Assembly (NCBI GenBank): GCA_001899235.1
Contig: MKVR01000016.1
Span: 82,868-137,172, forward strand
Direction of reading: 5' to 3'
Length of the DNA stretch: 54,305 nucleotides
DNA from: Nitrosospira sp. 56-18
Lineage (GTDB): Bacteria; Pseudomonadota; Gammaproteobacteria; Burkholderiales; Nitrosomonadaceae
Shown piece by piece: positions 8,712 to 50,776 of this stretch. The translations under genes and the position numbers were made by a program. How positions within the stretch are numbered: the first letter of the stretch is position 1; each line of letters opens with the position of its first letter. The notes beneath the pieces were generated by a model, which did no database searches, had not been told where the DNA came from, and was given only the letters and a program-made list of their open reading frames with translations.

Positions 8712-9401
8712 ATGAGCGACTATCCGGTTATCGCGCTTAATCTGGCGGCAGCGCTGGCGGCAGGCGCGGTGATAGGCCTGGAAAGGACTGTCCATGGGCA
8801 TCCCGCCGGCTTCAGGACCCATGCGCTCGTATGCCTGGCCTGCAGCCTCCTCATGCTGATGACTTCATATCAGTCCCATTGGCTGCACGACGCGCCGGTC
8901 GGTTCGATAGGAGCGGATACGAGCAGGATGGCGCAGGGGATAGTGACGGGTATCGGATTTCTGGGCGCGGGAGTCATTTTCAAGGAAGGAATGACCATTC
9001 GCGGCCTGACTACTGCCGCTTCCATCTGGACCACCGCAGCCATCGGGATTCTGCTGGGGCTGGGATTTTACTTTCCCGCGCTTTTGGGAACAGGCCTCAT
9101 GCTGGGAGTGCTCACCTTGTTCAATTCAATTGAAATGAGACTTCCCCGCGACTCCTATGCTCAATACCACGTAAGCTTCGACAGAAACGATGTCATGCCG
9201 GAAGACCAGGTCCGAAGGCTCGTCGCCGACCATGGGTTTGAGATTGCGAACATGAGCTATCGCATTACGCCGACGGGATTGTTCGAATATCGCATGGATA
9301 TCCGCACCACGCGGGATCCGGACAGGACCGCCGATCTCGCGGAAACATTGCGTAAATCCGAAATGGTGCGGGAATTCCGCATTTCCACGACTGGCAATTA
9401 A
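8712..9401 (+). CDS. MgtC/SapB family membrane protein
   Basis: 229 residues. The first about 145 residues hold four to five hydrophobic helices with the MgtC signature: AAALAAGAVIGLERTVHG, GFRTHALVCLACSLLML, GIGFLGAGVIFKEG and GLTTAASIWTTAAIGILLG. A soluble C-terminal domain (about 150-229) follows, ACT-like in length. MgtC-type proteins are inner-membrane proteins linked to Mg limitation, ATP synthase control and survival; the exact role here is open. The stop codon TAA merges with the first bases of a dispersed repeat end. Confidence 0.88.
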   Translation: MSDYPVIALNLAAALAAGAVIGLERTVHGHPAGFRTHALVCLACSLLMLMTSYQSHWLHDAPVGSIGADTSRMAQGIVTGIGFLGAGVIFKEGMTIRGLTTAASIWTTAAIGILLGLGFYFPALLGTGLMLGVLTLFNSIEMRLPRDSYAQYHVSFDRNDVMPEDQVRRLVADHGFEIANMSYRITPTGLFEYRMDIRTTRDPDRTADLAETLRKSEMVREFRISTTGN

Positions 9402-9425
9402 GGAAGCGCTGAACGATTTTTGCTT
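9399..9425 (+). repeat. Solo end of the dispersed TA-flanked element (copy R1)
   Basis: TAAGGAAGCGCTGAAC matches the terminal inverted repeat of the element at 50774-51201 with one change. Its first three bases are the TAA stop of the MgtC-like gene. Similarity fades after about 25 bases. Confidence 0.7.
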
Positions 9426-9467
9426 CGAGAAGGATTCGGGATTCAGGAAGTCTTGCAGAATATTGCC

Positions 9468-9749
9468 TCACAAGGTGGCGATAACCATTCTTGCACCGGC
9501 CGCTGCGCTGCCACCGCTTGCCTGAATTGCATGAATGCCTTCGCTTTTCACCTTGTCCATGGCCATGCAAAAATCCCGCATTTCCATGCAATCCCTTGCC
9601 CATTCCCCAGGTTCAGTTTCATATGCCGCATCGTCCATGGTCATCGCCGCCGCTTCCCAGTGACCATGCGCTATTTCCAGCATGGCGATCTTGCATCGTG
9701 TGATTTGTTCGGGCGGTGCCGCCATCAGAATTTCGAATATGTTTTTCAT
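9468..9749 (-). CDS. Small protein of unknown function
   Basis: 93 residues. A strong ribosome site, GGAGG followed by 6 bases and ATG, supports real translation. The product has no signal peptide or membrane segment and is rich in Met, Ala and acidic residues, with a predicted helical first half. Cys is present in TRCKIA, ARDCMEM and DFCMAM. I do not recognise the family. It is isolated between the MgtC-like gene and the GGDEF-EAL gene. The 270 bases upstream of it (9750-10019) show nothing else. Confidence 0.55.
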   Translation of the reverse strand: MKNIFEILMAAPPEQITRCKIAMLEIAHGHWEAAAMTMDDAAYETEPGEWARDCMEMRDFCMAMDKVKSEGIHAIQASGGSAAAGARMVIATL

Positions 9750-10019
9750 GATGTGCCTCCACTCTTTTCACGTTCCTCACATTACTCTTTTCACTTTCTT
9801 CACAATAATAAGACAGTAATTTTTCATCGAGGTGCCGTCTTTTTTTCTTATTTTTACCATTTACCATTCGAGGATTTCCATGGCGAGAACAAGAGCGCCC
9901 GGCCGGAGCGGTGGCGCATCAAGTTTTTCCCGGAAATTCGGATAGGAGAAATATGGATCTGGCACCGCTATTGATATGCGGACGCTACCTTGCGGATGAA
10001 ATGAAGGAAATGTACTGTT

Positions 10020-11600
10020 TCAGGACAACAGGGGGTAGTCCAAAGCATCGAGATTCCTAGCCTTTCCTGTCGCGGCGGCCTCCTGCCTGTCTACCCAGAC
10101 GATCATTTTATCCTCCAGCATAGGCCTGGAAAAAAAGAAACCTTGCAGCTCATCGCATTGCAGTTCCTCAAGAATCCTTCGCTGCCCTTCTGTTTCGACT
10201 CCCTCGGCCACGACGCTCAAATCCAGGACATGCGCGAGGTTGATCACGGCCTTGACTATAGCGCGTGCGTCGCTGTTCTTTTCAAGGTCGGTGATGAAAC
10301 TGCGGTCGATCTTCAACTGGCGGGCCGGCAACTGGCGCAGGTAGCTCAGGCTGGAGTGGCCGGTGCCAAAATCATCTATGGACAAGCGCACGCCTATGTC
10401 CGCCAGCTTCTTGAAAAAATGCTGGGTTGCGTCGATATCTTTCATTGCGACCGATTCAGTCAACTCGCATATCAACTGCGATGGCTCCAGCTGGTGCCGC
10501 CTCAACGCCTGCCGGATGCTGTCTGCCAGATCATCCTGGCGCAGTTGATGCATCGACAGATTGATGGCAACGCTCATCCGCATGCCTTCTTGAGACCACG
10601 CCTCCATCTGGCGGCATACTTCATCGATAACCCAGTTGCCCAGGCCATAGATCAGGCCAAAGCGCTCTGCGAGAGGAATGAATATCTCGGGGCCGATGAT
10701 GCCGCGCTCCGGGTGATTCCAGCGCAGCAATGCTTCCATGCCTCTGACTCGCCCGTCGGTCACGCCTACCTTGGGCTGATAATACAACTGCAACTGGCCA
10801 AGCTCGACCGCGCTACGCAGGTCCCTGTGCAAATCAAGCTGATCCATGGCGCTGTCTTCCATTTCCGGCTCGAACAACGCATAGCCGTTTCCGCCGGAAC
10901 GCTTGGCGGTATGCATGGCTGCATCGGCGCAAGTCAACAACTTGTTCCTTATGTCCTGGTCCGGATAAACCACGACACCCACTGAACCGGAAATCTTGAT
11001 TTGCTGACCGTCGACGTGGAAGGGTTGAGCCAGCGCCTTTACCAGCCGGCTGGCCAGTTGTGCGCAATCCGCCTTGTTGCGAACATCCTCCATCAGCAGC
11101 ACGAATTCGTCGCCTCCCAGCCTTGCCACCATGTCCGTGGTTCGGGCCAGTCCGCGCAGGCGCAGCCCCGCCTCCTTCAGTACCAGGTCGCCGACTGCAT
11201 GACCAAAGGCTTCATTGACCGGTTTGAAATGATCGAGGTCGGCGATCAGAACGGCGATACTTTTGGGCTTATGCCCGGTCCCGGGCTCACCCTGGTCCTG
11301 TTCCTCTGTTTTATCGCAGAGCGAAGCAAGCTTTGCAAGGCGGTTCTCGAACTGCACGCCGTTCGGCAATCCGGTAAGCGGATCGAGAAAGGAGCGCTTC
11401 TGCAACTCCTCGTTGGCGCTTTCGAGTTGCGCGCTGGCAGCTTTCAGCGAACGGGAGTATTGCAGGCGAGCTGCAAATGCGCAGACCAGCAGCGCCAGGA
11501 GAGTCATGGCGGTATCCGCGGCATAGAGGGAAACAATTGCAACGGCTGCAGCGGCAATGACCACCAGGTTGTTGCTTAACATCGAAGGGGGCATGACCAT
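10020..11600 (-). CDS. GGDEF-EAL c-di-GMP turnover protein, membrane anchored
   Basis: 526 residues. The N-terminus has one or two hydrophobic segments (about 11-45), then a short helical linker, a GGDEF domain (about 70-245) and an EAL domain (about 255-505). The cyclase signature is intact (GGDEF at 162-166), with an allosteric I-site RTTD five residues upstream. The phosphodiesterase domain also looks active: EALLRW (289-294), ELTES, DDFGTGHSSL, KIDRSF and VVAEGVET are all there. So both synthesis and breakdown of c-di-GMP are possible; which one dominates cannot be read from sequence. No sensor domain such as PAS is present. A role in motile-sessile switching would fit the flagellar locus 20 kb away. 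Confidence 0.95.
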   Translation of the reverse strand: MVMPPSMLSNNLVVIAAAAVAIVSLYAADTAMTLLALLVCAFAARLQYSRSLKAASAQLESANEELQKRSFLDPLTGLPNGVQFENRLAKLASLCDKTEEQDQGEPGTGHKPKSIAVLIADLDHFKPVNEAFGHAVGDLVLKEAGLRLRGLARTTDMVARLGGDEFVLLMEDVRNKADCAQLASRLVKALAQPFHVDGQQIKISGSVGVVVYPDQDIRNKLLTCADAAMHTAKRSGGNGYALFEPEMEDSAMDQLDLHRDLRSAVELGQLQLYYQPKVGVTDGRVRGMEALLRWNHPERGIIGPEIFIPLAERFGLIYGLGNWVIDEVCRQMEAWSQEGMRMSVAINLSMHQLRQDDLADSIRQALRRHQLEPSQLICELTESVAMKDIDATQHFFKKLADIGVRLSIDDFGTGHSSLSYLRQLPARQLKIDRSFITDLEKNSDARAIVKAVINLAHVLDLSVVAEGVETEGQRRILEELQCDELQGFFFSRPMLEDKMIVWVDRQEAAATGKARNLDALDYPLLS

Positions 11601-11735
11601 CCTCCAGATCGGATCGAATTATCTAATCAATACGGCCTGGTCACGGGAAACTTGAGGAAAAATCAGGAAATAATCCGGAAATTCCGTTTCAAGGCAAAGC
11701 ATCTTTCACGGGATTCCAGCGAATCCGGAATGGGA

Positions 11736-12737
11736 TTATGAGGATGCGGCACGTCCGGCAGCGGTGACAAGGACGATCTTTCCGATGTGCGCGCCGGATT
11801 CCATCAGCGCATGTGCCGCGGCAGCTTGCACCAGGTCGAAGGTCTGGAAGATCACCGGCTTGATCTGCCCCTGCCGTAAAAGAGGCCAGACGTGCTGTTC
11901 CAGTTCCTGCGCAATCTGCGACTTTTCCTGCACGGTGCGGGATCGCATGGTCGATCCAGTATGGGTCAGGCGCTTGGCCAGCATGGGCATCAGGTTCAGT
12001 TCGGGTGTGGGGCCATGCTGGACGCCTACCTGGATAATGCGTCCGTTCATGGCGGCTGCCCGGTAGTTTCGCGCCACGTAGTCGCCCGCGATGATATCCA
12101 CGACGATATCGGCCCCTTTGCCCTGCGTGAATCTTTTTGTCTCTTCCACGAAATCCTGGGTCGGGTAGTGGATCGCCAGATCTGCTCCCAGCGCCAGGCA
12201 CGCCTGCCGTTTTTCTTCCGAGCCGACGGTCGCCAGTACGGCAGCGCCGAATGCCTTGGAAAGCATGATGGCGGTGGTGCCGATGCCGGATGAACCGCCA
12301 TGGATCAGTACCGTTTCACCTGCCTTGAGGCCGCCGCGCTGGAACAGGTTGGCCCATACCGTAAAGAAGGTCTCTGGCAATGCTGCCGCTTCGATCATGC
12401 CAAGACCGTATGGAACCGGCAGCGCGTTGCTTTCATGCGCAACGCAAAACTCGGCGTAACCCCCGCCGGGAACGAGCGCGCATACCTTGTCGCCGATGCT
12501 GAAGCGGGTGGCTTCCGCACCCAGTGAGACCACTGTCCCGGCGATTTCGAGTCCCGGTATCTCCGGGGCACCTGCTGGCGGAGGGTAGATTCCCTTTCTT
12601 TGGAGAATATCCGGCCGGTTGACGCCAGCCGCTTCCACCCTGACGAGAATGTCTTGCTCTCCCGTTTGCGGGATGGGACGCGTGCAAGCTGTCAGCACTT
12701 CCGGGCCGCCGTAACGCGGGATATCTATGGCCAGCAT
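11736..12737 (-). CDS. NAD(P)H:quinone oxidoreductase, zinc-independent MDR family
   Basis: 333 residues from the ATG at 12737, giving the family start MLAIDIPRYGGPEVL. The frame stays open upstream to 12905 but that extension does not look like protein of this family. The medium-chain reductase fold is clear: AAGVNRPDILQRKGIYPPP, GLEIAGTVVSLG, then the NADPH loop HGGSSGIGTTAI. The catalytic zinc cysteines of alcohol dehydrogenases are lacking, as in quinone reductase/PIG3-type enzymes. The likely reaction is NADPH-dependent reduction of quinones or enones; the physiological substrate is unknown. Confidence 0.9.
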   Translation of the reverse strand: MLAIDIPRYGGPEVLTACTRPIPQTGEQDILVRVEAAGVNRPDILQRKGIYPPPAGAPEIPGLEIAGTVVSLGAEATRFSIGDKVCALVPGGGYAEFCVAHESNALPVPYGLGMIEAAALPETFFTVWANLFQRGGLKAGETVLIHGGSSGIGTTAIMLSKAFGAAVLATVGSEEKRQACLALGADLAIHYPTQDFVEETKRFTQGKGADIVVDIIAGDYVARNYRAAAMNGRIIQVGVQHGPTPELNLMPMLAKRLTHTGSTMRSRTVQEKSQIAQELEQHVWPLLRQGQIKPVIFQTFDLVQAAAAHALMESGAHIGKIVLVTAAGRAASS

Positions 12738-13192
12738 GCTCTGCCCGTTAAAAGATTCTGGAATCCATCGCGGTCCTGCCCCTGATGGAATAACGATCAT
12801 AGCAGCAACGAACTGCCGCCAGGAAGAACCACGAAGCGCGGCGCCATCTTCCCATTTCTGAAATTGCATCGAATTCCCATCCGCGGCCGCCTTGGATTGC
12901 TTCACAGCCAGTCAGATATTATGACGTAATCCTGAAAATAAAGGATTGTAAAGATAATGGGATTTTATATCACATGAATGATATATATTTTATATATTAA
13001 TAATCAATTATATCAAGCAATAACATGAACTATTATATTAGCGTGAAACTTATGTATATATCATTATTTTTCCGGTAAAGCATTTTGCAGCCTGGAAATC
13101 TGCGGAAGCCAGAGAGGGAATGGAAGATCAAGGAGTCGCCAAATCGGAAAAAGGCGGCGAGCCTCTCTCTATCTCTTTTCCCTCAGTCCACG
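12738..13192. other. Gene-poor AT-rich stretch
   Basis: No convincing gene. 12940-13080 is far more AT-rich than its surroundings, with runs such as ATATATATTTTATATATTAA, and could hold promoters or a curved region. Confidence 0.4.
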
Positions 13193-13303
13193 TTACGCCT
13201 ATGCCCGGGGAGGGGCGGTTGGTCCATCCTCCTGGCGTTGCGCCAGGCAGGCGAACAGATGCCCGTATCTGTCCTGACCGCCCGGGATACCGTGAACGAC
13301 CAG
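13193..13303 (+). pseudogene. Remnant of an OmpR-family response regulator receiver domain
   Basis: In one frame, 37 codons read like the middle of a heavy-metal type (CusR/CopR-like) receiver domain. They include PGRGGWSILLALRQAGEQ, then MPVSVLTARDTVND, which matches the usual PGxDGWxILxxLRxxG and PVLFLTARDxVxDR segments. The phosphoacceptor Asp side is lost (LRLC where DxxLPG is expected), and the downstream ADDYLVKPF part is missing. The flanking sequence gives no receiver or DNA-binding domain. I read it as a decayed gene fragment. The resemblance is from memory of the family, not from a search. Confidence 0.5.
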
Positions 13304-13563
13304 GCAAAAATAGTGTCTATAACGCAGGGTGTAACGAAGAAGCTTCCACAATTACTTGTCTCTGGATATATCTCGTGGAGCTCGATTTACCCCTGCGCAT
13401 TTACGAAAATGTGCCCAGATACTGCATGTAAAACATGATCCTGACTCATCCGTTCTGCAGTGGCGGGATGAGGCGGGCCATTCGGGGGAAGGCGATTTGC
13501 TGAGTCCGGAGGCCCGGGAAAGGCGGCAAGGGAGTTGGTTTCTCCGAAAGACAGGAGGTCGAT

Positions 13564-13743
13564 ATGAATGCGACTTGCGAGGAGGAGCAAAGAAAGGCCA
13601 GGGAAGCGTATGAGGCGTTGCAGCAATTAATAGGCAATTCGAATCCTCATGACGGCAGTATTGCCAGACAGCATTGGCAGGATGCCGAAAAGGCCTACGA
13701 GGATTGCCTGAGAAATTCTTCCGTTCCCGGTGACATCCACTAG
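13564..13743 (+). CDS. Small acidic protein, 59 residues, unknown
   Basis: Too short for most ORF cut-offs. The ATG at 13564 is preceded by a perfect AGGAGGT with a 4-5 base spacer, the strongest ribosome site in this gene-poor stretch. The product starts MNATCEEEQRKAREAYEAL and is Glu/Gln/Ala-rich and probably helical, with two Cys and no membrane segment. It ends at TAG. No family is recognised. Codon use fits the neighbours. It may be a real small gene or a chance ORF behind a good site. Confidence 0.5.
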   Translation: MNATCEEEQRKAREAYEALQQLIGNSNPHDGSIARQHWQDAEKAYEDCLRNSSVPGDIH

Positions 13744-14127
13744 CGTTTGCCAGAGCCCGCCTGTTGGCTGAAGATTCCTGCAGGTAGTTCTTCGCTTGAT
13801 GGAGAGCGGGCTCCGCAAGCGCGCAATAGCGGGAAGGAGAAGAGGGTACTGAAATATCGTCCCCGTGCGGTCACCGCCTGCCAGGCAAGGCGCGTGGCCG
13901 CCCATTCAAGATCCGCCAGGAATCATCGGTAACAGCTATAGAGTGTAGATACTCTGTTTGCCGTCAAGCATATTTTCCAGTTTTTTGTAAGCAAATGAGA
14001 CTTCAGGCAATTCCGCCGAGCCTCCGAGACGCCGTTCAACCTAGCGCTGGAAGCACGGCCCTGGCAGCCTCCGGTTGCATCGACAGAATCAGGAAAATTC
14101 CGAGGGTTTGGGCTTACAACCCCGACT
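13744..14127. other. Intergenic stretch without a recognised gene
   Basis: Contains an inverted pair GAGCCCGC (near 13753) and GCGGGCTC (near 13805) but no T tract. Nothing else is supported here. Confidence 0.35.
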
Positions 14128-14167
14128 CCTGAACAAGTCTCTGTCGTCCAGCAAGGATTTGTTCAGG
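14128..14167. repeat. Palindromic pair of variant element ends
   Basis: CCTGAACAA (14128-14136) faces TTGTTCAGG (14159-14167) across a 22-base loop. The arms and the next bases (GGATTTGTTCAG) resemble the ends of the dispersed element but with GGAACCCCTG in place of GGGAAGCGCTG. It lies just upstream of the DUF6279-like gene. Confidence 0.55.
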
Positions 14168-14224
14168 GGTTCCGGTTGCGCCGCGCTTGCGTCCGTACCG
14201 CTATTGCAGCCACAATAACGCGGC

Positions 14225-15154
14225 ATGAAAACGTTTCCCTTCAAGCGGTCGCTGATCATCCTGCTGGTTCCCGCGCTGTTCTCCTTGACGGGGTGCAGCA
14301 TTATCCGCTTCGGATACAACCAGGCGGACCACGTGACCTATTGGTGGCTGGACCGGTTCGTGGATTTCGACGAAACGCAAGGATCGCGCGTCCGTCCCGC
14401 CTTGGCCCACTGGTTTTCCTGGCACCGGCGCGAGCATCTGCCCCGGTATGCGGGCTTGCTGACCCATTCCAGGACCATGGTGCTGGAAGATACGACTCCG
14501 GAACGCACCTGCGGCTTATGGACGGAGATACGAGGTTATATGGATGAGGCGTTTGAGCGCGCTTTGCCGATCGCCGTGGATATCACGTCAACCCTGACTC
14601 CCCGGCAGATCCAGAATATCGAGCGGAGATACGCCAGGATCAATGAGGAATTCGACGAGGACCATGTTCGGGGCAACGCCGAGGCGCGCCTGAAGAGATC
14701 GATCAACCGCACCGTCGAGCGTGCCGAGTTCTTCTACGGCAAGCTCGACAGCCAGCAACGCGAATTTATCAAGCGGCGGCTGGCGGCCTCGCCTTACGAA
14801 GTGACTATCTGGAATGCGGAGCGCCACCGGCGCCAGCAGGATCTGGTGCAGTTGCTGCGGCAGTTGACGTCCGTCACGCCGGATCCGGACAGGATACGGC
14901 AAGCGCTGCGCGCCTACATGGAGCGCATCTACAACTCGCCCAACGAAGCCTACCGCAAGTATGCGGATAACTTGTGGGCATATAACTGCGGCTTTGTCGC
15001 GGGCCTTCACAATACCGCTACTCCCGCACAACGCGCGCATGCGGCGAAGAAAATCAGGGGATGGGAATCCGATATCCAGCTGCTGCTCACGCCAACGGAA
15101 ACAGCCAGGGTGGATTCGCTGCCTTCGCAGCCAGGCTTTCCCGCTTTGAGATAG
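14225..15154 (+). CDS. DUF6279-type lipoprotein
   Basis: 309 residues. Basic start, hydrophobic segment and lipobox LTGC (Cys about residue 24) mark a lipoprotein. Next comes the YNQADHVTYWWLDRFVDFD segment characteristic of the DUF6279 family (conserved aromatic YWW and LDxxxDF). The rest is helical with many Arg and Glu and a conserved-looking LTPRQIQNIERRYARIN and LDSQQREFIKRRL pattern. The function of the family is not established. It is followed 38 bases later by a small membrane protein. Confidence 0.8.
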   Translation: MKTFPFKRSLIILLVPALFSLTGCSIIRFGYNQADHVTYWWLDRFVDFDETQGSRVRPALAHWFSWHRREHLPRYAGLLTHSRTMVLEDTTPERTCGLWTEIRGYMDEAFERALPIAVDITSTLTPRQIQNIERRYARINEEFDEDHVRGNAEARLKRSINRTVERAEFFYGKLDSQQREFIKRRLAASPYEVTIWNAERHRRQQDLVQLLRQLTSVTPDPDRIRQALRAYMERIYNSPNEAYRKYADNLWAYNCGFVAGLHNTATPAQRAHAAKKIRGWESDIQLLLTPTETARVDSLPSQPGFPALR

Positions 15155-15192
15155 CCTCGAGACCGGCCCGCCCCAGGAAGAGGGAATCGCTT

Positions 15193-15774: not shown

Positions 15775-15984
15775 ATGACAACAGAAATCATCAGCGTTAA
15801 AGGCATGTCCTGCATGGGGTGTGTAAACAAGGTAAAAACTGGCCTGGAAAATACCGCAGGGGTGGAAGGTGCCGAGGTATCCCTGGAACAAAAGCAGGTG
15901 ACAGTTCAGTACGACGAGACAAAGACTCGGCCGGACCAGCTCAAGGACGCGATAAGGAAAGCGGGTTACGAGGTTATGAGCTAG
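15775..15984 (+). CDS. copZ: Copper chaperone, heavy-metal-associated domain protein
   Basis: 69 residues: exactly one HMA domain. The metal site is GMSCMGC (Cys13 and Cys16) in the loop after the first strand, and the C-terminal IRKAGYEVMS fits the ferredoxin-like fold. Such proteins carry Cu(I) to P-type ATPases or bind other soft metals in the cytoplasm. The ATG at 15775 follows AAGGAG at a good distance. No copper ATPase is adjacent, so it is a stand-alone chaperone here. Its TAG stop forms the first bases of element copy R2. The symbol copZ is by function, not proven orthology. Confidence 0.88.
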   Translation: MTTEIISVKGMSCMGCVNKVKTGLENTAGVEGAEVSLEQKQVTVQYDETKTRPDQLKDAIRKAGYEVMS

Positions 15985-16133
15985 GGAAGCGCTGAATGAA
16001 TCTCCGCTGTCGCGGCGGTGGGTTTGCGGGATGGGATGCGTGAAAGGCGACGACGCGAATGGTGCGGCCGCGCAGGGCGGAGCAGTGTCTTCCGAAAGGA
16101 AGATGCGACCCCGTAGCGGGATGCCTGGAGTCT
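15982..16133 (+). mobile_element. Truncated copy (R2) of the dispersed TA-flanked element
   Basis: Starts with TAGGGAAGCGCTGAAT at the copZ stop. About 150 bases match the reverse complement of the right half of the 50774-51201 copy, including GGTTTGCGGGATGGGATGCG and GGCGACGACGCGAATGGT. It carries the TCTTCC-GAAA-GGAAGA hairpin. Similarity ends soon after CCCCGTAGCGGG. A variant end (TAAGGAACCTCTGAACAAG) follows at 16137-16168 in the same orientation. Confidence 0.75.
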
Positions 16134-16176
16134 GCATAAGGAACCTCTGAACAAGTTTCTGCTGGCGAATTTCTGC

Positions 16177-17008: not shown

Positions 17009-17010
17009 CC

Positions 17011-21824: not shown

Positions 21825-22310
21825 GTGAACGTCATTGCGGCTATCTTCATGACACTGATTGCAGCCACCGCGCAAGCCAATTCCATTTACGACACCCCTG
21901 ATGCCGAAACCCGATTCAAGGAAGCGCAGCGACATGTAAAAGAGCTGATGGATGCGGGAAGATTTCAGGAAGCCTCAAAATACATGAGCGTCTACAAGAC
22001 CCTGGCATGCGAGGCTGCGGAACAAAAGGCAGGAAAGAGTGCTGAGGAAGGCGCTGCGGCCTGCGCGAGCAGAAGCACCCCAATTGGCCTCGCCTCAGGC
22101 GCCACCGCCCATCCTGTCGACTCAGGCGCGAACTCGCTGCTGGGTCCCGGCTTCACCGTTCGCCAGCGCCCCATGCCAGGCTCCTCCACCATGCTGGACG
22201 GTTCCACGCCATCCCTGTTTGTTTTTGACCCGCGAACCGTGCCCGGCTCGGACTCAGGTTCCAGCCCCAACCCCGGCAAGAAAGTGGACGCATGGACGGG
22301 TTCCCCTTAA
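21825..22310 (+). CDS. Secreted protein of unknown function
   Basis: 161 residues from a GTG start with AAGGAG 6 bases upstream. A short signal peptide (NVIAAIFMTLIAATAQA-NS) is followed by a helical segment with ETRFKEAQRHVKELMDAGRFQEASKYM, which looks like one TPR-type helix pair, and then by a Ser/Pro/Gly-rich tail without obvious fold. Two Cys are present in the middle. I do not recognise the family. The TAA stop forms the start of element end R3. Confidence 0.65.
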   Translation: MNVIAAIFMTLIAATAQANSIYDTPDAETRFKEAQRHVKELMDAGRFQEASKYMSVYKTLACEAAEQKAGKSAEEGAAACASRSTPIGLASGATAHPVDSGANSLLGPGFTVRQRPMPGSSTMLDGSTPSLFVFDPRTVPGSDSGSSPNPGKKVDAWTGSP

Positions 22311-22806: not shown

Positions 22807-22850
22807 ATTTCATAGGTTTGGTGAATCGTAAATTCATTATATAGAAAATC

Positions 22851-22894
22851 CCCGTCATTCCGGACGCCGCGCCAGCGGCGAGTTGGAATCCAGA
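22851..22894. repeat. REP-like palindromic repeat
   Basis: CCGTCATTCCGGAC, a CGCCGC-GCCA-GCGGCG hairpin, then GTTGGAATCCAG. The outer arms (ATTCC and GGAAT) also pair. A similar unit starts at 43622 and a related one is at 46626. It lies between the NrfJ-like gene and the end of uvrB. Confidence 0.6.
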
Positions 22895-30061: not shown

Positions 30062-30405
30062 TAAGGGAAGAGCTGGGCATATCTCCGTCAACGCAATAGC
30101 GGCATTTTGCGGGATGGGGATACGGGAATGGTGCGGCCACGGAGGACGGAACAGTGTCTTCCGCAGGAAGATTGCCCCTGCAGCGGACTCCCTGTAGCGG
30201 GCTGCTGGCGCTCCGGCAGCCTTTTAACATGGTCCGGTATCCCCGCCGCTGCCCGATCCTCGTCGCGAAATCCCTTGGGCAACACTTCAGGAAGCCATGG
30301 TTTGTGCTCCCTGGCATCGTAGTCCCTGCTGCGGCCTTTGTCGCGCCTATGATCGTCCTGATCTTACCCGCAATGCGTTCAAGGAGGATTTGCTCAGTTT
30401 TTCTA
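30062..30405 (-). mobile_element. Diverged full-length copy (R4) of the dispersed element
   Basis: 344 bases in the opposite orientation to the 50774-51201 copy. Shared blocks, in order: TTGCGGGATGGG, GAATGGTGCGGCC, a TCTTCC-GCA-GGAAGA hairpin, GTAGCGGGCTGCTGGCGC, a segment around TCCCTGGCATCGTAGTCCC, GATCGTCCTGAT and the end GGATTTGCTCAG. TA flanks both ends (30062-30063 and 30404-30405). Coding frames across it differ in direction from those in the other copy, so it is probably non-coding. Confidence 0.7.
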
Positions 30406-35273: not shown

Positions 35274-35280
35274 GGGATTG

Positions 35281-43616: not shown

Positions 43617-43621
43617 GGTCT

Positions 43622-43670
43622 CCGTCATTCCAGACCCCGCACCGGCGGAGATTTGTTCAGCGCTTCCCTA
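43622..43670 (-). repeat. REP-like unit joined to a solo element end (copy R5)
   Basis: On the plus strand CCGTCATTCCAGAC, then GGCGGAGATTTGTTCAGCGC and TTCCCTA. On the minus strand this reads as the element end TAGGGAAGCGCTGAACAAAT starting at the yeaD stop codon (43668-43670). The left part resembles the repeat at 22851. Confidence 0.7.
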
Positions 43671-44609
43671 ACCTTCGACGTGAAGCGCTTTCAATTCGTC
43701 CGGCAGATCGCGCTCTATCCGGTAGGTGGCCGTCAGCCGCGCTTCTCCATCAGGAAGGACTTGCGCCACGTCCGTATCCGCGTTGGTTGTTTCGACGCAT
43801 ACGAAGCGCTGGTAATCGTCGTCCTCGAGATCGCCCATTTCCGCAGAAATCTTCTCCCAGGGATTCCACACGACAGCGGTGTGACTACCTCTGGAAGCAA
43901 TGCATATCCTGCGATCCAGGGCAGCATCATCGATGACAAGTTCACTGCTCCCGTTACGGTAGATGCGATCCACTTCCCTGTTTATAGTGATCGGCCCGGA
44001 TTGCAGCTTGCGTGCGCCCTTGTCGGTCTTGTCGATATATTCGGTATTTTCCAGCCCCAGGACAGCTATCCGGCTGATATGCCCTACCTTGAAATAGGTA
44101 TGAAGCGCCTGAGTGATCGAAAAAGGCTGGCCGCCAGCATTGCGCGTGATCAATTCCAGGCGCAGCGACTTCCCCACCGTGATTTCCAGTTGCAGCATAA
44201 ATGCGTTCGGCCAAATATCCCGCGTTTCCGCGCTATCGGCCAGCCCCAGTGTCACCTTGCTCTCTTCACTGGAAATTGCTTCAGTGTGCATCACTTCCCA
44301 GAACCGGGTGCGCACAAATCCATGCGCCGGCCGGCCCTTCCCTTCCGGATCCGGACCAAACCAGGGCCAGCAAACAGGACTTCCCCCCTTGATGCTTTTG
44401 CCGGGAGCATAGTAGGCCAACTGGCTGAGGAACATCAGGTTGTGCTGCTCATTGGCTGGTTGAAACGATAATACCTGCCCGCCATAGACCGAGATGACGG
44501 CGCTGGCACTGTCATTGCTGACCTTGATGAAAGGAAAGCCGGCGGGACCTTCGACAACCTTGATCTGGTCATCGATGCGATGGTCGATATTCAATTGCTC
44601 GATATCCAT
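43668..44609 (-). CDS. D-hexose-6-phosphate mutarotase (YeaD family)
   Basis: 313 residues from the ATG at 44609; a TTG 7 codons upstream is weaker. Aldose-1-epimerase-like beta sandwich with GGQVLSFQP, GGSPVCWPWFGP, HGFVRTRFW (catalytic His region), LHTYFKVG and the Glu in VETTN near the end. It interconverts the alpha and beta anomers of glucose-6-phosphate and similar sugars in the cytoplasm. Function by family; specificity not tested. Its TAG stop coincides with element end R5. Confidence 0.92.
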   Translation of the reverse strand: MDIEQLNIDHRIDDQIKVVEGPAGFPFIKVSNDSASAVISVYGGQVLSFQPANEQHNLMFLSQLAYYAPGKSIKGGSPVCWPWFGPDPEGKGRPAHGFVRTRFWEVMHTEAISSEESKVTLGLADSAETRDIWPNAFMLQLEITVGKSLRLELITRNAGGQPFSITQALHTYFKVGHISRIAVLGLENTEYIDKTDKGARKLQSGPITINREVDRIYRNGSSELVIDDAALDRRICIASRGSHTAVVWNPWEKISAEMGDLEDDDYQRFVCVETTNADTDVAQVLPDGEARLTATYRIERDLPDELKALHVEG

Positions 44610-44876
44610 GATTCTGCCTGGCGCCTCCAAGTCGCCTTCTTCCTTATGCGGCGGCTCCGCCGCGGATGCCCCCCGCCGGGTTGATCGGGTGATCGGGATA
44701 TTCCTGTTTTAAAGCGGAAATGAAACGCGACGCCGTGAATGAATGTGCAAATGAAGCCAGCCCCGGCAGCCACCCGTGCGGCGTTCGGGAACCGCATTGC
44801 GCGGCGTAATCCAATGCGATGATAGCACGCAAAAATTCCATTGAGGAAAGGCAGTGGAGAAGATTTTGGCAGAGGA
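44610..44876. other. Gap between yeaD and the DUF3293 gene
   Basis: 267 bases on the minus-strand side. No reliable gene; overlapping short frames have no start signal. Probably the yeaD promoter region. Confidence 0.35.
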
Positions 44877-45425
44877 TCAACGAAGCAGGATGAGCCGGGG
44901 AATGGCGTCTTCGTCCGCCCATACCAGGGCATTCTGCCTGAATTCCCTGCCCAGCCGGATCGCTGTTTCCAGATCCAGCCCCAGCACGAGAAAACTCTTT
45001 TCTCCCGGCCATGTGCCGATGGAATCGCTGCTCTCCCCATCGATGATCTCTTCCGGCCGGGCACAATAGTGCATCAGCCTGTCCCGCAGCCGGGCGCAAG
45101 CCGCAAGGTTCTCCTCGTGGCCATGCGGCATGCTCAAGGGATTGCATGCCGTGATGAATGCCGCGCACCGATGGCCGGAAGCAGCGAAAAGCTGCGATAG
45201 CGCTGCGGAATACTCATCTACATGCAGGACGAATGCGCTATCGAACGCGTTATCCGGGCTTGCGGCCACTGTTCCTCCTCCCGTCGCCGCCGATGGCGCC
45301 GCTGGCATGACCCAGTAGCCAGCGGAACGGTAGGCACTGATGAGCCTCGTGGGAATGGCGGATCGTGCAGGTTGCGTAGGCCGGATTAGTGGAGCGTAAT
45401 CCGGCAGCGGCAATTCATTCTTCAT
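44877..45425 (-). CDS. DUF3293-type protein
   Basis: 182 residues, ATG directly after an in-frame TGA and without a good ribosome site. The segment AAFITACNPLSMPHGHEENLAAC and the later SFLVLGLDLETAIRLGREFRQNALVW fit the DUF3293 family (conserved NP and Gly/Leu patterns). No signal peptide. Function unknown. The gene lies between yeaD and a 2-hydroxyacid dehydrogenase, all on the minus strand with separate promoters likely. Confidence 0.75.
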   Translation of the reverse strand: MKNELPLPDYAPLIRPTQPARSAIPTRLISAYRSAGYWVMPAAPSAATGGGTVAASPDNAFDSAFVLHVDEYSAALSQLFAASGHRCAAFITACNPLSMPHGHEENLAACARLRDRLMHYCARPEEIIDGESSDSIGTWPGEKSFLVLGLDLETAIRLGREFRQNALVWADEDAIPRLILLR

Positions 45426-45481
45426 TCATATGGGCGCATCGCTTTTTCCGGATTCATTACATATGCGGGTTCATAGCTCAG

Positions 45482-45506
45482 CGAGGATTTGTTCAGCGCT
45501 TCCCTA
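45482..45506 (-). repeat. Solo element end (copy R6)
   Basis: Minus-strand TAGGGAAGCGCTGAACAAAT then CCTCGCTGAGC, nearly identical to the left-type end at 50774. Its first three bases are the TAG stop of the dehydrogenase gene (45504-45506). Confidence 0.75.
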
Positions 45507-46514
45507 GCCTCCACGTACCAATTCAACAGTCACCTCGTTCTGGCACAATCCCTCGCGCTCGAACAAACTGACATTCTGCAACGTGGTTCGCGCGATGCTG
45601 GCAAGCGCTTCAGCAGTAAAGAATCCCTGATGGCCGGTGATCACAACATTGGGAAATGTCAGCAGGCGCTCGAATACGTCATCCTGCCGCACCTGGTCGG
45701 ATAAATCGCGGAAGAACAAGTCGCCTTCCTGCTCATAGACATCCAGACCAAGGTAGCCGATCCTGGATGCTTTCAGTCCCTCTATCACCGCGCGGGTATC
45801 GATGACCGCGCCGCGGCTCGTGTTGATCAGCATTACGCCGCGCTTCATGCGCGCAATCGCCGCGGCGTCGATCAGATGATGCGTTTGCGGATTGAGCGGG
45901 CAATGCAAGGTAATGATATCGCTGCCGGCATAGAGTTGTTCCAGCGGCACATACTCAACGCCCAGACTGATGCAATCGACGCTTGGCTGGGGATCGTGGG
46001 CCATCAGGCGGCAGCCGAAACCATGCAGTATCTGCGCCACCGCGCTGCCAATATGCCCGGTGCCGATGATGCCGGCAGTTTTTCCGCGCAATTCGAAGCC
46101 AAGCAACCCCTGCAGCGCGAAATTGCCGTTGCGCACCCGGTTGTAAGCCTGATGCAGATAGCGGTTGAGCGCCAGCATCAGGGCGACTGTATGTTCCGCC
46201 ACGGAATACGGCGAATAGGCAGGTACGCGTACCACGCGGAGCCCAAACCTGCCCGCCGCTGAAATATCGACATTATTGAATCCCGCGCAGCGCAGCGCGA
46301 TCAGGCGCGTGCCCTGCCCCGCCAGTGCTTCCAATACCGGGGCATCCAGTGTGTCATTGACGAACGCGCACACCGCGGGAAATCCCGCCACCATTTGCCG
46401 CGTCTCCTGGCAGAGGTGCGAATCGAAGAACGCCAGTTCATGCCCGGAGTCGCGGTTGGCATCCGACAGAAACTGGCGGTCGTAGGACTGGGCGCTGCAC
46501 ACGGCGACTTTCAT
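45504..46514 (-). CDS. ldhA: D-lactate-type 2-hydroxyacid dehydrogenase
   Basis: 336 residues. Family order: AGFNNVDI, the YSPYSVAEHTVAL segment, NAD loop GTGHIGSAVAQI with the Asp in LMAHDPQP, LHCPLNPQTHHLI, NTSRGAVIDT, then DVYEQEGDLFF and the catalytic His in ITGHQGFFT. The DVYExExxLFF segment is typical of D-lactate dehydrogenases of the LdhA group, so D-lactate/pyruvate interconversion with NADH is likely. Start at 46514 with a weak AGGAG-like site (CAGGAAAGGAGCC). Confidence 0.9.
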   Translation of the reverse strand: MKVAVCSAQSYDRQFLSDANRDSGHELAFFDSHLCQETRQMVAGFPAVCAFVNDTLDAPVLEALAGQGTRLIALRCAGFNNVDISAAGRFGLRVVRVPAYSPYSVAEHTVALMLALNRYLHQAYNRVRNGNFALQGLLGFELRGKTAGIIGTGHIGSAVAQILHGFGCRLMAHDPQPSVDCISLGVEYVPLEQLYAGSDIITLHCPLNPQTHHLIDAAAIARMKRGVMLINTSRGAVIDTRAVIEGLKASRIGYLGLDVYEQEGDLFFRDLSDQVRQDDVFERLLTFPNVVITGHQGFFTAEALASIARTTLQNVSLFEREGLCQNEVTVELVRGG

Positions 46515-46625
46515 TCAGGCTCCTTTCCTGCTTTCCCCCGCATTGTCCGGCGAACAAAAAAACAGCACCATCCAGCGGCAAACAGAACGATTGTCATGAT
46601 TGTCATATCTGCGAAAAATCAGCAT

Positions 46626-46644
46626 GCCTGCGAAAGCAGGTATC
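46626..46644. repeat. Short palindromic REP-like repeat
   Basis: CCTGC-GAAA-GCAGG hairpin followed by TATCCA, the common bacterial CCTGCGAAAGCAGG repeat. It lies between the dehydrogenase and the GDCCVxC gene. Confidence 0.6.
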
Positions 46645-46680
46645 CAATTATATACGCAAGCCCAAAGTGGCGAAATTGCA

Positions 46681-47013
46681 CTACCGCCTTGTGGCATTCC
46701 CTTCGCAGCAGGCGGATCGCGCCTGGATCGGAGGACATTTGACCGAACCAAAGGAACAAAAAACGCAGCAATCGCCGGGGCGGGGACGCAACAGCGCCTT
46801 GCAGCCGCTGCACTCATAATAGTACTGGCATGCGTTCGTCGGCATAAGTTCTTTCTTCGCGCACCCGCAGCGAGGACATGTCAATACGGATTCCAGGACG
46901 GGGACATTCGGATGATGGTCTTGAGACAAGATGCGAGACATGATGCGCCACGGAGTTTTCAAGGACATGATATCGATGAACGGCAGCCGTGTATTCATTG
47001 GTTTGAATCGCAT
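46681..47013 (-). CDS. GDCCVxC-type zinc-ribbon-like protein
   Basis: 110 residues; ATG at 47013 with AGGAAAA upstream, though the conserved part starts near residue 42 and later Met codons are possible. Four Cys in two pairs (TCPRCG and ECSGCK) form a zinc-ribbon pattern. They are followed by GDCCVFCSFGSVKCPPIQ, the hallmark of the GDCCVxC family. In some members one Cys of this box is selenocysteine; here both CC codons read TGC. Function unknown, perhaps metal or redox handling. Confidence 0.8.
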   Translation of the reverse strand: MRFKPMNTRLPFIDIMSLKTPWRIMSRILSQDHHPNVPVLESVLTCPRCGCAKKELMPTNACQYYYECSGCKALLRPRPGDCCVFCSFGSVKCPPIQARSACCEGNATRR

Positions 47014-47186
47014 CGATATTTTCCTGTAGTCTTGTAGTCCTGTAGTCCCATGTTTTGCCGACGATCCGGGGCCTTCACTATCCTGAATTGCTTAAATCCA
47101 CAAGCCTCCCCATCTCGGCTATCATGAGTAAGGGATGGATAATTTGTTCATCAATGAAACGATTTGCTGCAAACGGAGGAAGGGAG

Positions 47187-48155
47187 ATGAGGATTTTCGT
47201 TCAAAGGCAGGCCGCGCCTCAACCACCCCTTCCCTCCTCCTTTTTCCGTCCTTCTCCCGCGGCGGCAAGCCCTCGCGAACCACGCGATCTCATTCTGCGC
47301 CTGCAGCGCACGATGGGCAACCAGGCGGTGCGGCGCATGTTGGGCTCGCATGCCGGATCGCCTCGCGGCAAACCGTCGGGCAGCATGAACATTACAGCGA
47401 GGCCTGGCCGGCAAGTTGTGGCCAGCGATCCGGCGCAACTGGCTGAGCGAGCAGGCATTCAAGGCAGTTTTTTGGCGAAATCGCCCGCCACGGTCATGCG
47501 CCAACCTTCCGATCCCGCTAAAAAAGGCGGCGAGCCCAAGCCGGAAAGCAAACCGGTGGATCGTGAAAAGATGATCAAGGCGCTGTGCGTGAATGAACCC
47601 ATAGACGATGCGCACGCACGCTGCCAGTTCACCAGCGAGCAGTTGAGCGTGGCCAGAATCATCAAGGAGCACGCCCTGCGCAGGTGCACACGGGCAATTT
47701 CCGCCATCAACATGCCCGGCAATGAAGACCGGGTGAAGCAGCTCGCCCGGGATTATTTCAACCTGAATGTCAAGCTGAGCGACAAAACAAAAAAGACATT
47801 CATCCGCAGCATCCAGGCGGTCGCAGACAAGCTGAGCCAGTCGCCCATCGAATGCGGCAACTGCCAGGACAAGCATTGCAATGATAATGCCATTGCCCAC
47901 GTGGACGAAGCGCGGACATTCCTGGTCTTATGCCCCTTGTTCTTCAACAGCGACATGACCAAGCTCGCCACGGCTCCGCGCGTGCTGATACACGAAGCCG
48001 GGCATCTCGCAAACCTGGATCAGAACACCAGCCTCAACGAGGAATTCTATTGCTTTCAGGCGGCAACCAAGGATGAAAAATGCCCGCTGGTCGATGCCAT
48101 CCATAATGTGGACGCCTGGTCTCACTTCATCAACGAGCTGTCGTTCACCATTTGA
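47187..48155 (+). CDS. Metallopeptidase with an eCIS-type N-terminal tag
   Basis: 322 residues from the ATG at 47187 (GGAGGAAGGGAG upstream). Residues 39-52 read LQRTMGNQAVRRML, the motif common at the N-terminus of proteins linked to extracellular contractile injection systems. A Pro/Lys-rich linker follows (about 100-125). The C-terminal half has HExxH as HEAGH (269-273) and NVDAW (307-311), in the arrangement of aspzincin/M35 or Lys-specific metallo-endopeptidases with Asp as third ligand. Nine or more Cys in the C-terminal domain suggest disulfides, as in secreted proteins. No signal peptide. No eCIS structural genes are in the window, so delivery is unknown. Confidence 0.75.
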   Translation: MRIFVQRQAAPQPPLPSSFFRPSPAAASPREPRDLILRLQRTMGNQAVRRMLGSHAGSPRGKPSGSMNITARPGRQVVASDPAQLAERAGIQGSFLAKSPATVMRQPSDPAKKGGEPKPESKPVDREKMIKALCVNEPIDDAHARCQFTSEQLSVARIIKEHALRRCTRAISAINMPGNEDRVKQLARDYFNLNVKLSDKTKKTFIRSIQAVADKLSQSPIECGNCQDKHCNDNAIAHVDEARTFLVLCPLFFNSDMTKLATAPRVLIHEAGHLANLDQNTSLNEEFYCFQAATKDEKCPLVDAIHNVDAWSHFINELSFTI

Positions 48156-48236
48156 TAAAATTCCCTGAAAAGAATGGGGACAATCCGGTATTGCCATTAT
48201 CGGCGGTGGCGGCGCCGTGACGCGGGTGAAAATTGA

Positions 48237-48983
48237 ATGAAAGAAGATTATTGGCTGGATCGCTGGAAGCGGGGCGAGACCGCGTTTCACCAGGACGAGA
48301 TCAATCCGTATTTAAGCCAATACTGGCCTGAACTCGGCCTTGTGCCGGGGAGCATGGTTTTCGTGCCGCTGTGCGGCAAAAGCCGGGATATGCTGTGGCT
48401 GCGAGCGCAGGGCCACCCCATTTTGGGCATAGAACTGAGCAACGTGGCGGCTGAGGCATTTTTCGTGGAAAACGGCCTCGCGCCGAAGCGTATTCGCAGC
48501 GAAAAATTCGACTGTTACGAAGCGGATGGCATCCGCATCCTGTGCGGCGATTTTTTCGACCTGGACAAAGCGGAACTCGCGAGCGTCCACGCCATTTATG
48601 ATCGGGGAGCGCTGATCGCCCTGCCGCCCGAAACGCGCAAACGCTACGCGGCGCATCTGCTTGGCATCCTGCCCGCTCTGCCCGTGCAGCCCGCGTCACC
48701 CACCGTGCTCCCTGCCTCCGCGGTATCTTCCTCCATTCAAATGCTGCTGATAACACTCGATTATCCTGCCGGGGAAATGGAAGGGCCGCCATTCGCGGTT
48801 CCCCCGGAAGAAGTGGAAGCGCTCTACAAGAACAAGAAAAGCAAGGCGCACGCGGATATCCGCCTGCTTCTGCACGAGGACGTGCTGGAAGAAAACCCGC
48901 GCTTCCAGGAACGCGGCTTGAGCCGGCTGGCGGAAAATATTTTCCTGCTGAGATTCGAGGCTGGCGGCAGGCCTGGACCATGA
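48237..48983 (+). CDS. tpm: Thiopurine S-methyltransferase family protein
   Basis: 248 residues. Start MKEDYWLDRWKRGETAFHQDEINPYL, then VFVPLCGKSRDMLWLRAQGH (SAM loop), GIELSNVAAEAFF, and IYDRGALIALPPETR are diagnostic. The proteobacterial enzymes methylate thiopurines or, for tellurite and selenite tolerance, metalloid compounds. A Pro/Ser-rich insert at about 148-165 is extra. ATG at 48237 has no strong ribosome site but the frame begins with the conserved motif. Confidence 0.93.
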   Translation: MKEDYWLDRWKRGETAFHQDEINPYLSQYWPELGLVPGSMVFVPLCGKSRDMLWLRAQGHPILGIELSNVAAEAFFVENGLAPKRIRSEKFDCYEADGIRILCGDFFDLDKAELASVHAIYDRGALIALPPETRKRYAAHLLGILPALPVQPASPTVLPASAVSSSIQMLLITLDYPAGEMEGPPFAVPPEEVEALYKNKKSKAHADIRLLLHEDVLEENPRFQERGLSRLAENIFLLRFEAGGRPGP

Positions 48984-49072
48984 CTCGTTGATGGCCTGAC
49001 GGGATGGAGCCTACGAAATTGCGGAAATGTATGTTTCAAAACGAACGGCCACCCTCTCAGATCCAATCCCCA

Positions 49073-49088
49073 AAACGGACATCCGTTT
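49073..49088. terminator. Short hairpin between convergent genes
   Basis: Perfect 7-bp stem AAACGGA and TCCGTTT with CA as loop. It lies between tpm (plus) and the lipoprotein (minus). No T tract beyond the stem, so weak. Confidence 0.35.
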
Positions 49089-49101
49089 CGCCTTGGCGTC
49101 G

Positions 49102-49458
49102 CTACTCGCTCGCATCCTCCGCGAGCCGGCGGTGAAACTTCGCCATATTGCTGTTTGCCTCCGCGCCTTCCTCGTATACCCGCACCATGGCTTCGGTATG
49201 TTCCTGCAGGTCTTCCGTGCGGCGGCCATAATAATAGCCGTGCTGCGTGTATTCATTCATCATGTTCCTCTCCACCTTCGCCTTTGCCTGCATTCTTTTC
49301 GCCGCGTTCTCGTAGTACTGGGCCAGGGCGCTGTGGTCGGCCCTGGTCCTGGCATTGCGGATTGCACTGCTCATGTCCGTGGATTGAGGATCGGTATGCG
49401 CGCAGGAAACAAGCAGGCCAAGAGCGAACAAGGTTGCGATAAGACGTTTCGATTTCAT
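49102..49458 (-). CDS. Small lipoprotein of unknown function
   Basis: 118 residues from the ATG at 49458, with GGAGATTGATA upstream. Signal peptide with lipobox LVSC (Cys about 19), then a helical, charged domain: SALAQYYENAAKRMQAKAKVE, a His/Tyr-rich HGYYYGRR and a C-terminal helix. Family not named by me; small lipoproteins of this kind with a DHxALAxYYE start occur in several betaproteobacteria. Confidence 0.65.
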   Translation of the reverse strand: MKSKRLIATLFALGLLVSCAHTDPQSTDMSSAIRNARTRADHSALAQYYENAAKRMQAKAKVERNMMNEYTQHGYYYGRRTEDLQEHTEAMVRVYEEGAEANSNMAKFHRRLAEDASE

Positions 49459-49762
49459 TATCAATCTCCAGGGACAGGCAACAAGATAACTTCATGACTG
49501 ATTTCGACAATGCCGCAGCACTGAAAGTAACCTGCACTCCGGTGCCAGGTCCATCGTTCACCGCCGTCGCGGCACGGTTTTGCAGGGATATTTACAGCGA
49601 AACCCTCGACCCAACTCGTTGTATTGATGCCAGCAGGTGCGGCAATTTGTCGCATATAAACGTCATAAATTATATTACACTACGTAAATAACTATATATG
49701 GAATGTGGTCTTTTGCATTGAATTATAGTTTGAAAAAAAGAAAATTTTTCGGAGCGGGACGG

Positions 49763-50776
49763 ATGAATCAGTCGAAGACCCTGCCGGGATTGCTTGCAAT
49801 CTCCGCTTTTGCCATTTGCACCAGCGCGGAGGCCGATCACGGCTCCCTGGGGTTTGGTATCGGTACCGCCTCCCCGATCATTACCCAGACTGGCATAACG
49901 CTTCCTGCCGGAATGTGGGCCGGAGGCCTCATTACGCAATTTACGAGTTTCAACAGCGCTTCGGATTCCCTGCTTCTCAATTTGAAAAATAATGCGATTG
50001 ATGATGCCCATGGGGACGTTCACAGCGTGAAATCCCTTCTGGTCCCATCCGTGTTTGCCGCCTACGGAGTGACCGACAACCTGACCCTGGGCATCAGGCT
50101 TCCTTATGTTCAGCGTTTTGGCGTACGTTCGCCCAATGAAGATGGGGATGCCGTGGATAAACTGGGCAATCCGGGAGGTTTTGGCGGTGTCTCCCTGTTC
50201 GGTCAGTATCGTTTTTTTCATACCCCGGATCAGCTGAATCATTTATCTCTGGTAGTTGCGCTCAAGACCCCATCCGGCGCAACCCACGTCCAGACTAATC
50301 AAGGCGAGCGCTTCGAAACGCACCATCAGCCCAGCAGCGGATCATGGAATCCGGCGGTCGGCTTTTCTTTCACCCGCGCGATGGGAAAGTTTTCGCTGGA
50401 TAGCAGCGTGCTTTATACGGTAGCGACCCAGGGGGCGCAAAAAACCGACCTGGGCGATACTTTTGACTATAACCTCGCACTTTCCTATGCTTTCGTCGGC
50501 GTGGCCAGAAACAATCTTTTTGTTGGCAGCAACAATGCGCCGTGGACAGCGGTATTGGAGCTCAACGGCATGTGGCAGGATCGCCAGAAAACTACTGGCC
50601 TGGTTGACCCCAATTCGGGTAGCAATACCGTTTATATTTCTCCCGGCATACGGTACGCCGGAGGCAAGCACTGGAATACCGCATTGTCGATAGGCACGCC
50701 GATAGTCAAGGACCGCAATGGCTACCAAAGCCCGCCTGATTACCGGATTACCTACCGCCTGGTTTTCGCATATTAG
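49763..50776 (+). CDS. Outer-membrane transporter-like beta-barrel protein
   Basis: 337 residues from the ATG at 49763 (GGAGCGGGACGG upstream). A signal peptide ends SAEA-DH. The rest is beta-rich with alternating hydrophobic strands, with GVTDNLTLGIRLPYVQRF, GFGGVSLFGQYRFF and aromatic C-terminal RITYRLVFAY (ending in Tyr, near the usual C-terminal aromatic of outer-membrane proteins). It fits the meta-pathway phenol degradation-like (PF13557-type) barrel. What it carries is not known. Its TAG stop begins element R7. Confidence 0.75.
   Translation: MNQSKTLPGLLAISAFAICTSAEADHGSLGFGIGTASPIITQTGITLPAGMWAGGLITQFTSFNSASDSLLLNLKNNAIDDAHGDVHSVKSLLVPSVFAAYGVTDNLTLGIRLPYVQRFGVRSPNEDGDAVDKLGNPGGFGGVSLFGQYRFFHTPDQLNHLSLVVALKTPSGATHVQTNQGERFETHHQPSSGSWNPAVGFSFTRAMGKFSLDSSVLYTVATQGAQKTDLGDTFDYNLALSYAFVGVARNNLFVGSNNAPWTAVLELNGMWQDRQKTTGLVDPNSGSNTVYISPGIRYAGGKHWNTALSIGTPIVKDRNGYQSPPDYRITYRLVFAY

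What the first reader, a model, noticed from the sequence alone, without database searches (positions are those of the whole stretch)
9399..50776. The element begins exactly at stop codons in six of its copies
The stop of the MgtC-like gene (9399-9401, TAA), copZ (15982-15984, TAG), the 161-residue gene (22308-22310, TAA), yeaD (43668-43670, TAG), the dehydrogenase (45504-45506, TAG) and the transporter (50774-50776, TAG) are all the first bases of the element. A TA target inside TAG or TAA, with the element supplying the next G or A, would restore a stop on insertion. This puts the element directly at gene 3' ends, where it could act as terminator, 3' UTR or mRNA stabiliser.
Basis: seen in the sequence. 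Interest (0 to 1): 0.75.

Follow-up and report, generated by a model that had tools for sequence, protein, structure and literature searches.

The report
Mini-transposon lodged at gene stop codons
A small non-coding relative of the IS5 jumping gene has spread through this bacterium, and because its landing site (pyrimidine-T-A-purine) often coincides with a TAA or TAG stop codon, a good share of its copies sit flush against the ends of genes, probably because they do little harm there.

Summary
The six coordinates are right. The element is an IS5-family MITE with ends GGAAGCGCTGAA[C/T]AAAT and a 4-bp YTAR target duplication. The stop codon is part of that duplication: a host stop that was already there. 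Of 66 congener orthologs of five of the six genes, 64 end within 3 residues of the same place and none has the element within 80 nt.

The pattern holds outside the window, but more weakly. In 40 stretches taken on a fixed grid (800 kb), 8 of 28 copies abut a called stop, against 106 of 848 non-coding YTAR sites (p=0.02). The stop itself is not special: over all 60 sampled stretches, stop sites and sites 1-50 nt past a gene end are used equally (18 per 165 and 17 per 167). Both are used more than other non-coding sites; coding sites are almost unused (2 per 1276). Halomonadaceae show no excess.

A terminator/3' UTR role has no support: no terminator-like site lies in the six window copies, and the two element ends face stops equally (13 and 13).

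Verdict: a new member of a known kind, with a clear target-site explanation.

The parts
9398..9401 (+). TTAA target site containing the TAA stop of the MgtC-family gene 8712-9401
   Evidence: 16 of 16 orthologs stop at the same residue
9402..9418 (+). solo element end relic (GGAAGCGCTGAACGATT); not supported by body similarity
15981..15984 (+). CTAG target site containing the TAG stop of the CopZ-like HMA gene 15775-15984
   Evidence: orthologs not tested
15985..16127 (+). truncated element copy, L-type end at the stop, about 143 bp recognisable
22307..22310 (+). TTAA target site containing the TAA stop of the 161-residue gene 21825-22310
   Evidence: 14 of 14 orthologs stop at the same residue
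22311..22346 (+). solo element end relic, 36 bp
43668..43671 (-). TTAG target site (minus strand) containing the TAG stop of the aldose-1-epimerase (YeaD-like) gene 43668-44609
   Evidence: 12 of 21 orthologs stop at the same residue, 19 of 21 within 3
43637..43667 (-). solo element end relic, 31 bp
45504..45507 (-). CTAG target site containing the TAG stop of the 2-hydroxyacid dehydrogenase gene 45504-46514
   Evidence: 12 of 12 orthologs stop at the same residue
45476..45503 (-). solo element end relic, 28 bp, R-type
50773..50776 (+). TTAG target site containing the TAG stop of the gene 49718-50776
   Evidence: 3 of 3 orthologs stop at the same residue
50777..51198 (+). complete 422-bp MITE with two 17-bp inverted ends; second flank CTAG at 51199-51202
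   Evidence: fold z -5.3
30122..30397 (.). body of the same MITE without recognisable ends (not counted among the insertions)

Best explanation
The element is a non-autonomous IS5-family MITE (complete copies mainly about 273, 345 and 422 bp). An IS5_4-type transposase inserts it into the palindromic-type tetramer YTAR and duplicates those 4 bp. A TAA or TAG stop preceded by a pyrimidine is such a tetramer, so an insertion there leaves the host stop intact in the first copy of the duplication and puts the element directly downstream. Shown here: the ends, the YTAR duplication, pre-existing stops in congeners, absence from TGA stops, near-absence from coding DNA, and equal use of stop sites and sites 1-50 nt past a gene end. 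Inferred: stops are hit because they are YTAR sites in the 0-50 nt zone behind genes, where insertions are tolerated; an end abutting a stop is further protected because deletions that cross into the gene are removed, which leaves short solo ends such as the four 17-36 bp relics in the window.
For: Ends and TSD: 24 of 44 complete non-window copies have identical flanking tetramers, 29 of 44 have YTAR on both sides; non-palindromic direct repeats. Full IS5_4 elements with one exact end and one end at 2-3 mismatches in other organisms (L105 1214 bp, L139 1185 bp, L081 1231 bp); a congener IS with related ends and CTAG on both sides (L216), and exact ends near transposase frames in G019 and G020. 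Stops pre-exist: of 66 orthologs of 5 genes, 57 end at exactly the same place, 64 within 3 residues, none with the element within 80 nt, 39 with YTAR at the stop. Target requirement: of 700 stops in 40 stretches, an end with at most 2 mismatches follows 14 of 123 YTAR stops and 0 of 577 others, including 0 of 352 TGA stops. Site use over 60 stretches, insertions per YTAR sites: stop 18/165, 1-50 nt past a 3' end 17/167, 51-150 nt 5/133, 61-150 nt before a start 8/197, within 60 nt of a start 5/277, coding 2/1276 (summed). Retention: stop-adjacent ends lack a far end in 15 of 29 against 19 of 95 other ends (p=0.0016) and keep shorter homology (median 147 against 289 bp, p=0.02) (part of that DNA was fetched around exact ends).
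Against: Sites far from any called gene, which should be the most tolerant, are little used (4/294); so tolerance alone does not explain the 0-50 nt zone unless such regions hold features that my gene finder misses. Body identity of at-stop and other copies is the same (93.0 against 92.8 %, p=0.78), which does not favour greater age of the relics. Exact ends alone are at stops in 4 of 47 against 111 of 1554 background sides (p=0.77). In the new grid stretches alone the stop excess is not significant (4 of 18 against 56 of 491, p=0.25). Halomonadaceae copies show no excess (6 of 29 against 24 of 142). No intact IS5_4 transposase was found in this genome (two weak fragments), so the mobilising enzyme is inferred.
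Confidence: 0.75

Rival explanations
1. Targeting of gene 3' ends: the transposition machinery prefers the 0-50 nt zone behind genes (for example easily opened DNA or transcription-linked supercoiling), and stops are simply its first YTAR site.
For: Stop and 1-50 nt sites are used equally and several times more than sites far from genes (18/165, 17/167 against 4/294). Helix-destabilised DNA is proposed to attract E. coli IS5 (PMC5493358, passages read).
Against: No stop excess in Halomonadaceae copies with the same ends. Selection against promoter and coding insertions predicts part of the same gradient. 'Far' regions may hold missed genes.
Confidence: 0.15
2. Exaptation: copies at stops are kept because they serve the upstream gene as terminator, 3' UTR or mRNA stabiliser.
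For: Stop-adjacent ends are retained even as short relics. A full copy read as RNA folds better than shuffles (z -5.3).
Against: No terminator-like site in any of the six window copies. No Rfam match. L and R ends face stops equally (13 and 13, OR 1.04). Stop-adjacent ends are more degenerate, not more conserved (13 of 29 against 16 of 95 with mismatches). Relics of 17-36 bp lack the body that forms the hairpin.
Confidence: 0.06
3. One reading: a TA target, with the element supplying the next G or A to rebuild a stop.
For: Stops next to the element are always TAA or TAG (30 of 30 at-stop ends).
Against: 4-bp YTAR direct repeats on both sides; orthologs without the element have the same stop; the third stop base varies with the target, while the element always starts GGAA.
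Confidence: 0.02

Closest known systems
MITEPsy1 of Pseudomonas syringae pv. phaseolicola 1448A (PMC3189936, passages read)
   Same: Listed as 'IS5?' MITE; similar end (GGAAGGTCTGAAAAAGCC); [quoted passage not shown]
   Different: 100 nt and six copies in that table; here mostly 273-422 bp and 108 exact ends, a different body, and a marked position behind genes.
IS5 of E. coli and the IS5 family (PMC5493358, passages read)
   Same: Py-T-A-Pu 4-bp target duplication, most often CTAG; full elements with the present ends encode NCBIfam IS5_4 transposases.
   Different: The copies here carry no transposase; different end sequence.
Correia/NEMIS elements and RUP (PMC2229807, passages read)
   Same: Short non-autonomous repeats with TA at the boundary.
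   Different: RUP is linked there to IS630-Spn1; here the duplication is YTAR and the ends are IS5-type.

Membership tests
IS5-family MITE | Terminal inverted repeats | tested here: met
   17-bp ends, 44 complete non-window copies plus one in the window
IS5-family MITE | 4-bp YTAR target duplication | tested here: met
   24 of 44 identical tetramers, 29 of 44 YTAR on both sides; non-palindromic direct repeats. The others differ at one or more bases.
IS5-family MITE | No transposase of its own; ends shared with an autonomous IS5 | tested here: met
   106-423 bp copies; full IS with these ends (one exact, one with 2-3 mismatches) and IS5_4 transposase in other genomes, related ones in congeners; none intact found in this genome
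IS5-family MITE | Mobilised in trans by an IS5 transposase | not testable with these tools
   needs a transposition assay
IS5-family MITE | High copy number in one lineage | tested here: met
   108 exact ends in this genome, 0-2 in each of 22 congeners
Intrinsic transcription terminator | G+C-rich stem followed by a T run | tested here: not met
   no consensus site inside the six window copies; other copies not scanned

The most novel reading that the evidence does not exclude
Gene ends act as a dedicated safe harbour for this MITE: either the transpososome senses the 3' zone of genes beyond YTAR, or stop-adjacent ends are altered after insertion because a fixed, immobilised copy there is favoured by the host (over 60 stretches, 5 of 9 stop-adjacent ends of complete copies carry mismatches, against 3 of 47 other ends).
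Probability: 0.15. Interest if true: 0.6.

Novelty: new member of a known kind. Interest (0 to 1): 0.3.

Why it matters
It shows how a short target that contains TAA/TAG lets a transposon spread in a compact genome with little damage to genes, and gives a worked case of separating target sequence, tolerance and relic retention. It also warns that an 'element begins with a stop codon' pattern can be a target duplication rather than a function.

Tried and rejected
Rejected: TA duplication; stop restoration by the element; terminator; RNA family. Claims of my own that I dropped: the YTAR-conditioned odds ratio of 3.9 and the two-fold excess of stops over the 1-50 nt class (p=0.07), which came from requiring an intact YTAR (kept by selection at a stop); without that condition stops and 1-50 nt sites are used equally. 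The claim that only degenerate relics are enriched (noted), which the insertion count does not bear out. I therefore fetched 20 more grid stretches and recounted.

The consensus of the 421-423 bp copies mixed two orientations and was not used. The cross-taxa gene finder was trained on mixed species for the 'other taxa' set (8 of 57 against 22 of 374, p=0.04), so that figure is weak. The gene finder is my own, not a standard annotator.

Rows dropped: ends within 250 nt of a stretch edge; insertions within 300 nt (10) and truncated copies within 450 nt of an edge (3 and 10; 0, 3 and 0). Ortholog loci used: 21 of 21 matching congeners for YeaD, 16 near full-length of 22 for MgtC, 3 of 3 for 49718-50776, 12 of 22 for the dehydrogenase (fragments and paralogs left out), 14 of 22 for the 161-residue gene; CopZ not tested. 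Element bodies were found by similarity to complete copies, so very old bodies are missed.

Full report
What is there. All six stated stop codons are followed directly by a common end sequence. Searching the window's own genome (3.29 Mb, 54 contigs) with GGAARCGCTGAAYRAAT gives 359 ends with up to 3 mismatches, against 23 for the reversed control pattern, and 86 exact ends preceded by YTAR. The 36 complete copies first collected are 106-423 bp, mainly about 273, 345 and 422 bp.

Target duplication. Flanks on the two sides repeat the same four bases, including non-palindromic cases (TTAG...TTAG, CTAA...CTAA). In the non-window DNA, 24 of 44 complete copies have identical tetramers and 29 of 44 have YTAR on both sides; the others differ at one or more bases. 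The element therefore begins at GGAA, and the TAA/TAG belongs to the duplicated target. The 422-bp window copy has TTAG on the left and CTAG on the right, one base different.

Relatives. Three of these loci hold insertion sequences of about 1.2 kb with one exact end and one end at 2-3 mismatches (L105, L139, L081); their proteins match DDE_Tnp_1, DUF772 and the NCBIfam IS5_4 model above cut-off. In the genus, 5 of 23 genomes have an IS5_4 transposase above cut-off. One of these (L216) is bounded by related ends with CTAG on both sides, and exact ends lie near transposase frames in G019 and G020. In this genome only two weak fragments were found. The exact end GGAAGCGCTGAAYAAAT occurs 108 times here and 0-2 times in each of 22 congeners, so the expansion belongs to this lineage.

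Stops were there first. For five of the six genes I compared 66 congener orthologs: 57 end at exactly the same place, 64 within three residues, none has the element within 80 nt, and 39 carry YTAR at the stop. The element supplies nothing to the stop.

Is it more than chance? I built a hexamer gene finder. Three sets of 20 stretches were counted by insertion, without requiring an intact YTAR. Grid: 4 of 10 copies at a called stop, against 50 of 357 non-coding YTAR sites (p=0.045). Grid: 4 of 18 against 56 of 491 (p=0.25). Both grids: 8 of 28 (3 of 10 complete, 5 of 18 truncated) against 106 of 848 (odds ratio 2.8, p=0.02). Stretches, picked after I had seen element places but not their stop status: 10 of 31 against 59 of 385 (p=0.02). 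Counting single ends in the first 40 stretches without regard to flank, 13 of 62 are at stops against 111 of 1554 sides (p=0.0006), but exact ends alone give 4 of 47 (p=0.77). All 30 at-stop ends are at CTAG, TTAA or TTAG. Among 700 stops, ends with at most 2 mismatches follow 14 of 123 YTAR stops and 0 of 577 others, including 0 of 352 TGA stops. The excess is real but moderate; the window (6 of 6) is an extreme sample of a rate near 30 %.

Is the stop special? No. Summed over the 60 stretches, insertions per available YTAR site are 18/165 at stops, 17/167 at 1-50 nt past a 3' end, 5/133 at 51-150 nt, 8/197 at 61-150 nt before a start, 5/277 within 60 nt of a start, 4/294 far from genes and 2/1276 in coding DNA. 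Stops and the next 50 nt are used alike. The low use of far sites is not what tolerance alone predicts; either my gene finder misses features there or transposition favours gene ends. An earlier count that required YTAR had shown a two-fold excess of stops over the 1-50 nt class; that was a selection effect of the requirement.

Relics. In one search (124 ends, partly from stretches fetched around exact ends) stop-adjacent ends more often lack a far end (15 of 29 against 19 of 95, p=0.0016), are more often degenerate (13 of 29 against 16 of 95, p=0.005) and keep shorter homology (p=0.02), as expected if deletions erode the element from the side away from the gene. Body identity is equal (93.0 and 92.8 %, p=0.78), which does not favour greater age. 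An unexplained detail: in complete copies, stop-adjacent ends carry mismatches in 5 of 9 and other ends in 3 of 47, while in the four such copies listed the far ends are exact.

Other taxa. In Halomonadaceae loci with the same ends, 6 of 29 non-coding ends are at stops against 24 of 142 sites, no excess; in a mixed set 8 of 57 against 22 of 374 (p=0.04, weak).

Function. No terminator-like site falls within the six window copies, no Rfam family matches the window, and L and R ends face stops equally (13 and 13, 4 unclassified). A full copy folds well as RNA (z -5.3), as an inverted-repeat element would; the short relics lack that body. I conclude that position at stops is most likely a by-product of target sequence and of the favoured zone behind genes.

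Literature. MITEPsy1 (PMC3189936, passages) is the closest published element that I saw: IS5-like end, CTAG/YTAA duplication. IS5's Py-T-A-Pu duplication is in PMC5493358 (passages). In five searches of the held library (titles and abstract starts of the listed papers) I saw no report of an IS5-type MITE concentrated at stop codons; that is a statement about those listings only. A review of prokaryotic MITEs (PMC10969869) has no occurrence of 'stop codon' in its main text.

Noticed in passing
window 30122-30397: Body of the same MITE without recognisable 17-bp ends, apparently an end-less remnant.
   Followed up: partly
window 16137-16167; L140:763: End of a sister IS5-type family (GGAACCTCTGAACAAGT); a 346-bp complete sister copy lies in L140.
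   Followed up: partly
L154:9716, L161:17627, L165:10553, L170:3852: Stop-adjacent ends of complete copies carry a mismatch while the far ends are exact; unexplained.
   Followed up: partly
window 22849-22885 and 43619-43655: A short GTCATTCC-type repeat near gene 3' ends, overlapping the solo element end that starts at 43637.
   Followed up: no
G000 contigs C8, C9, C10, C16, C18, C24, C35, C36, C48: Element ends within about 500 bases of contig ends, suggesting that copies break the assembly.
   Followed up: no
L287, L288, L289: Two viral (IMG/VR) contigs carry the exact YTAR-flanked end.
   Followed up: no
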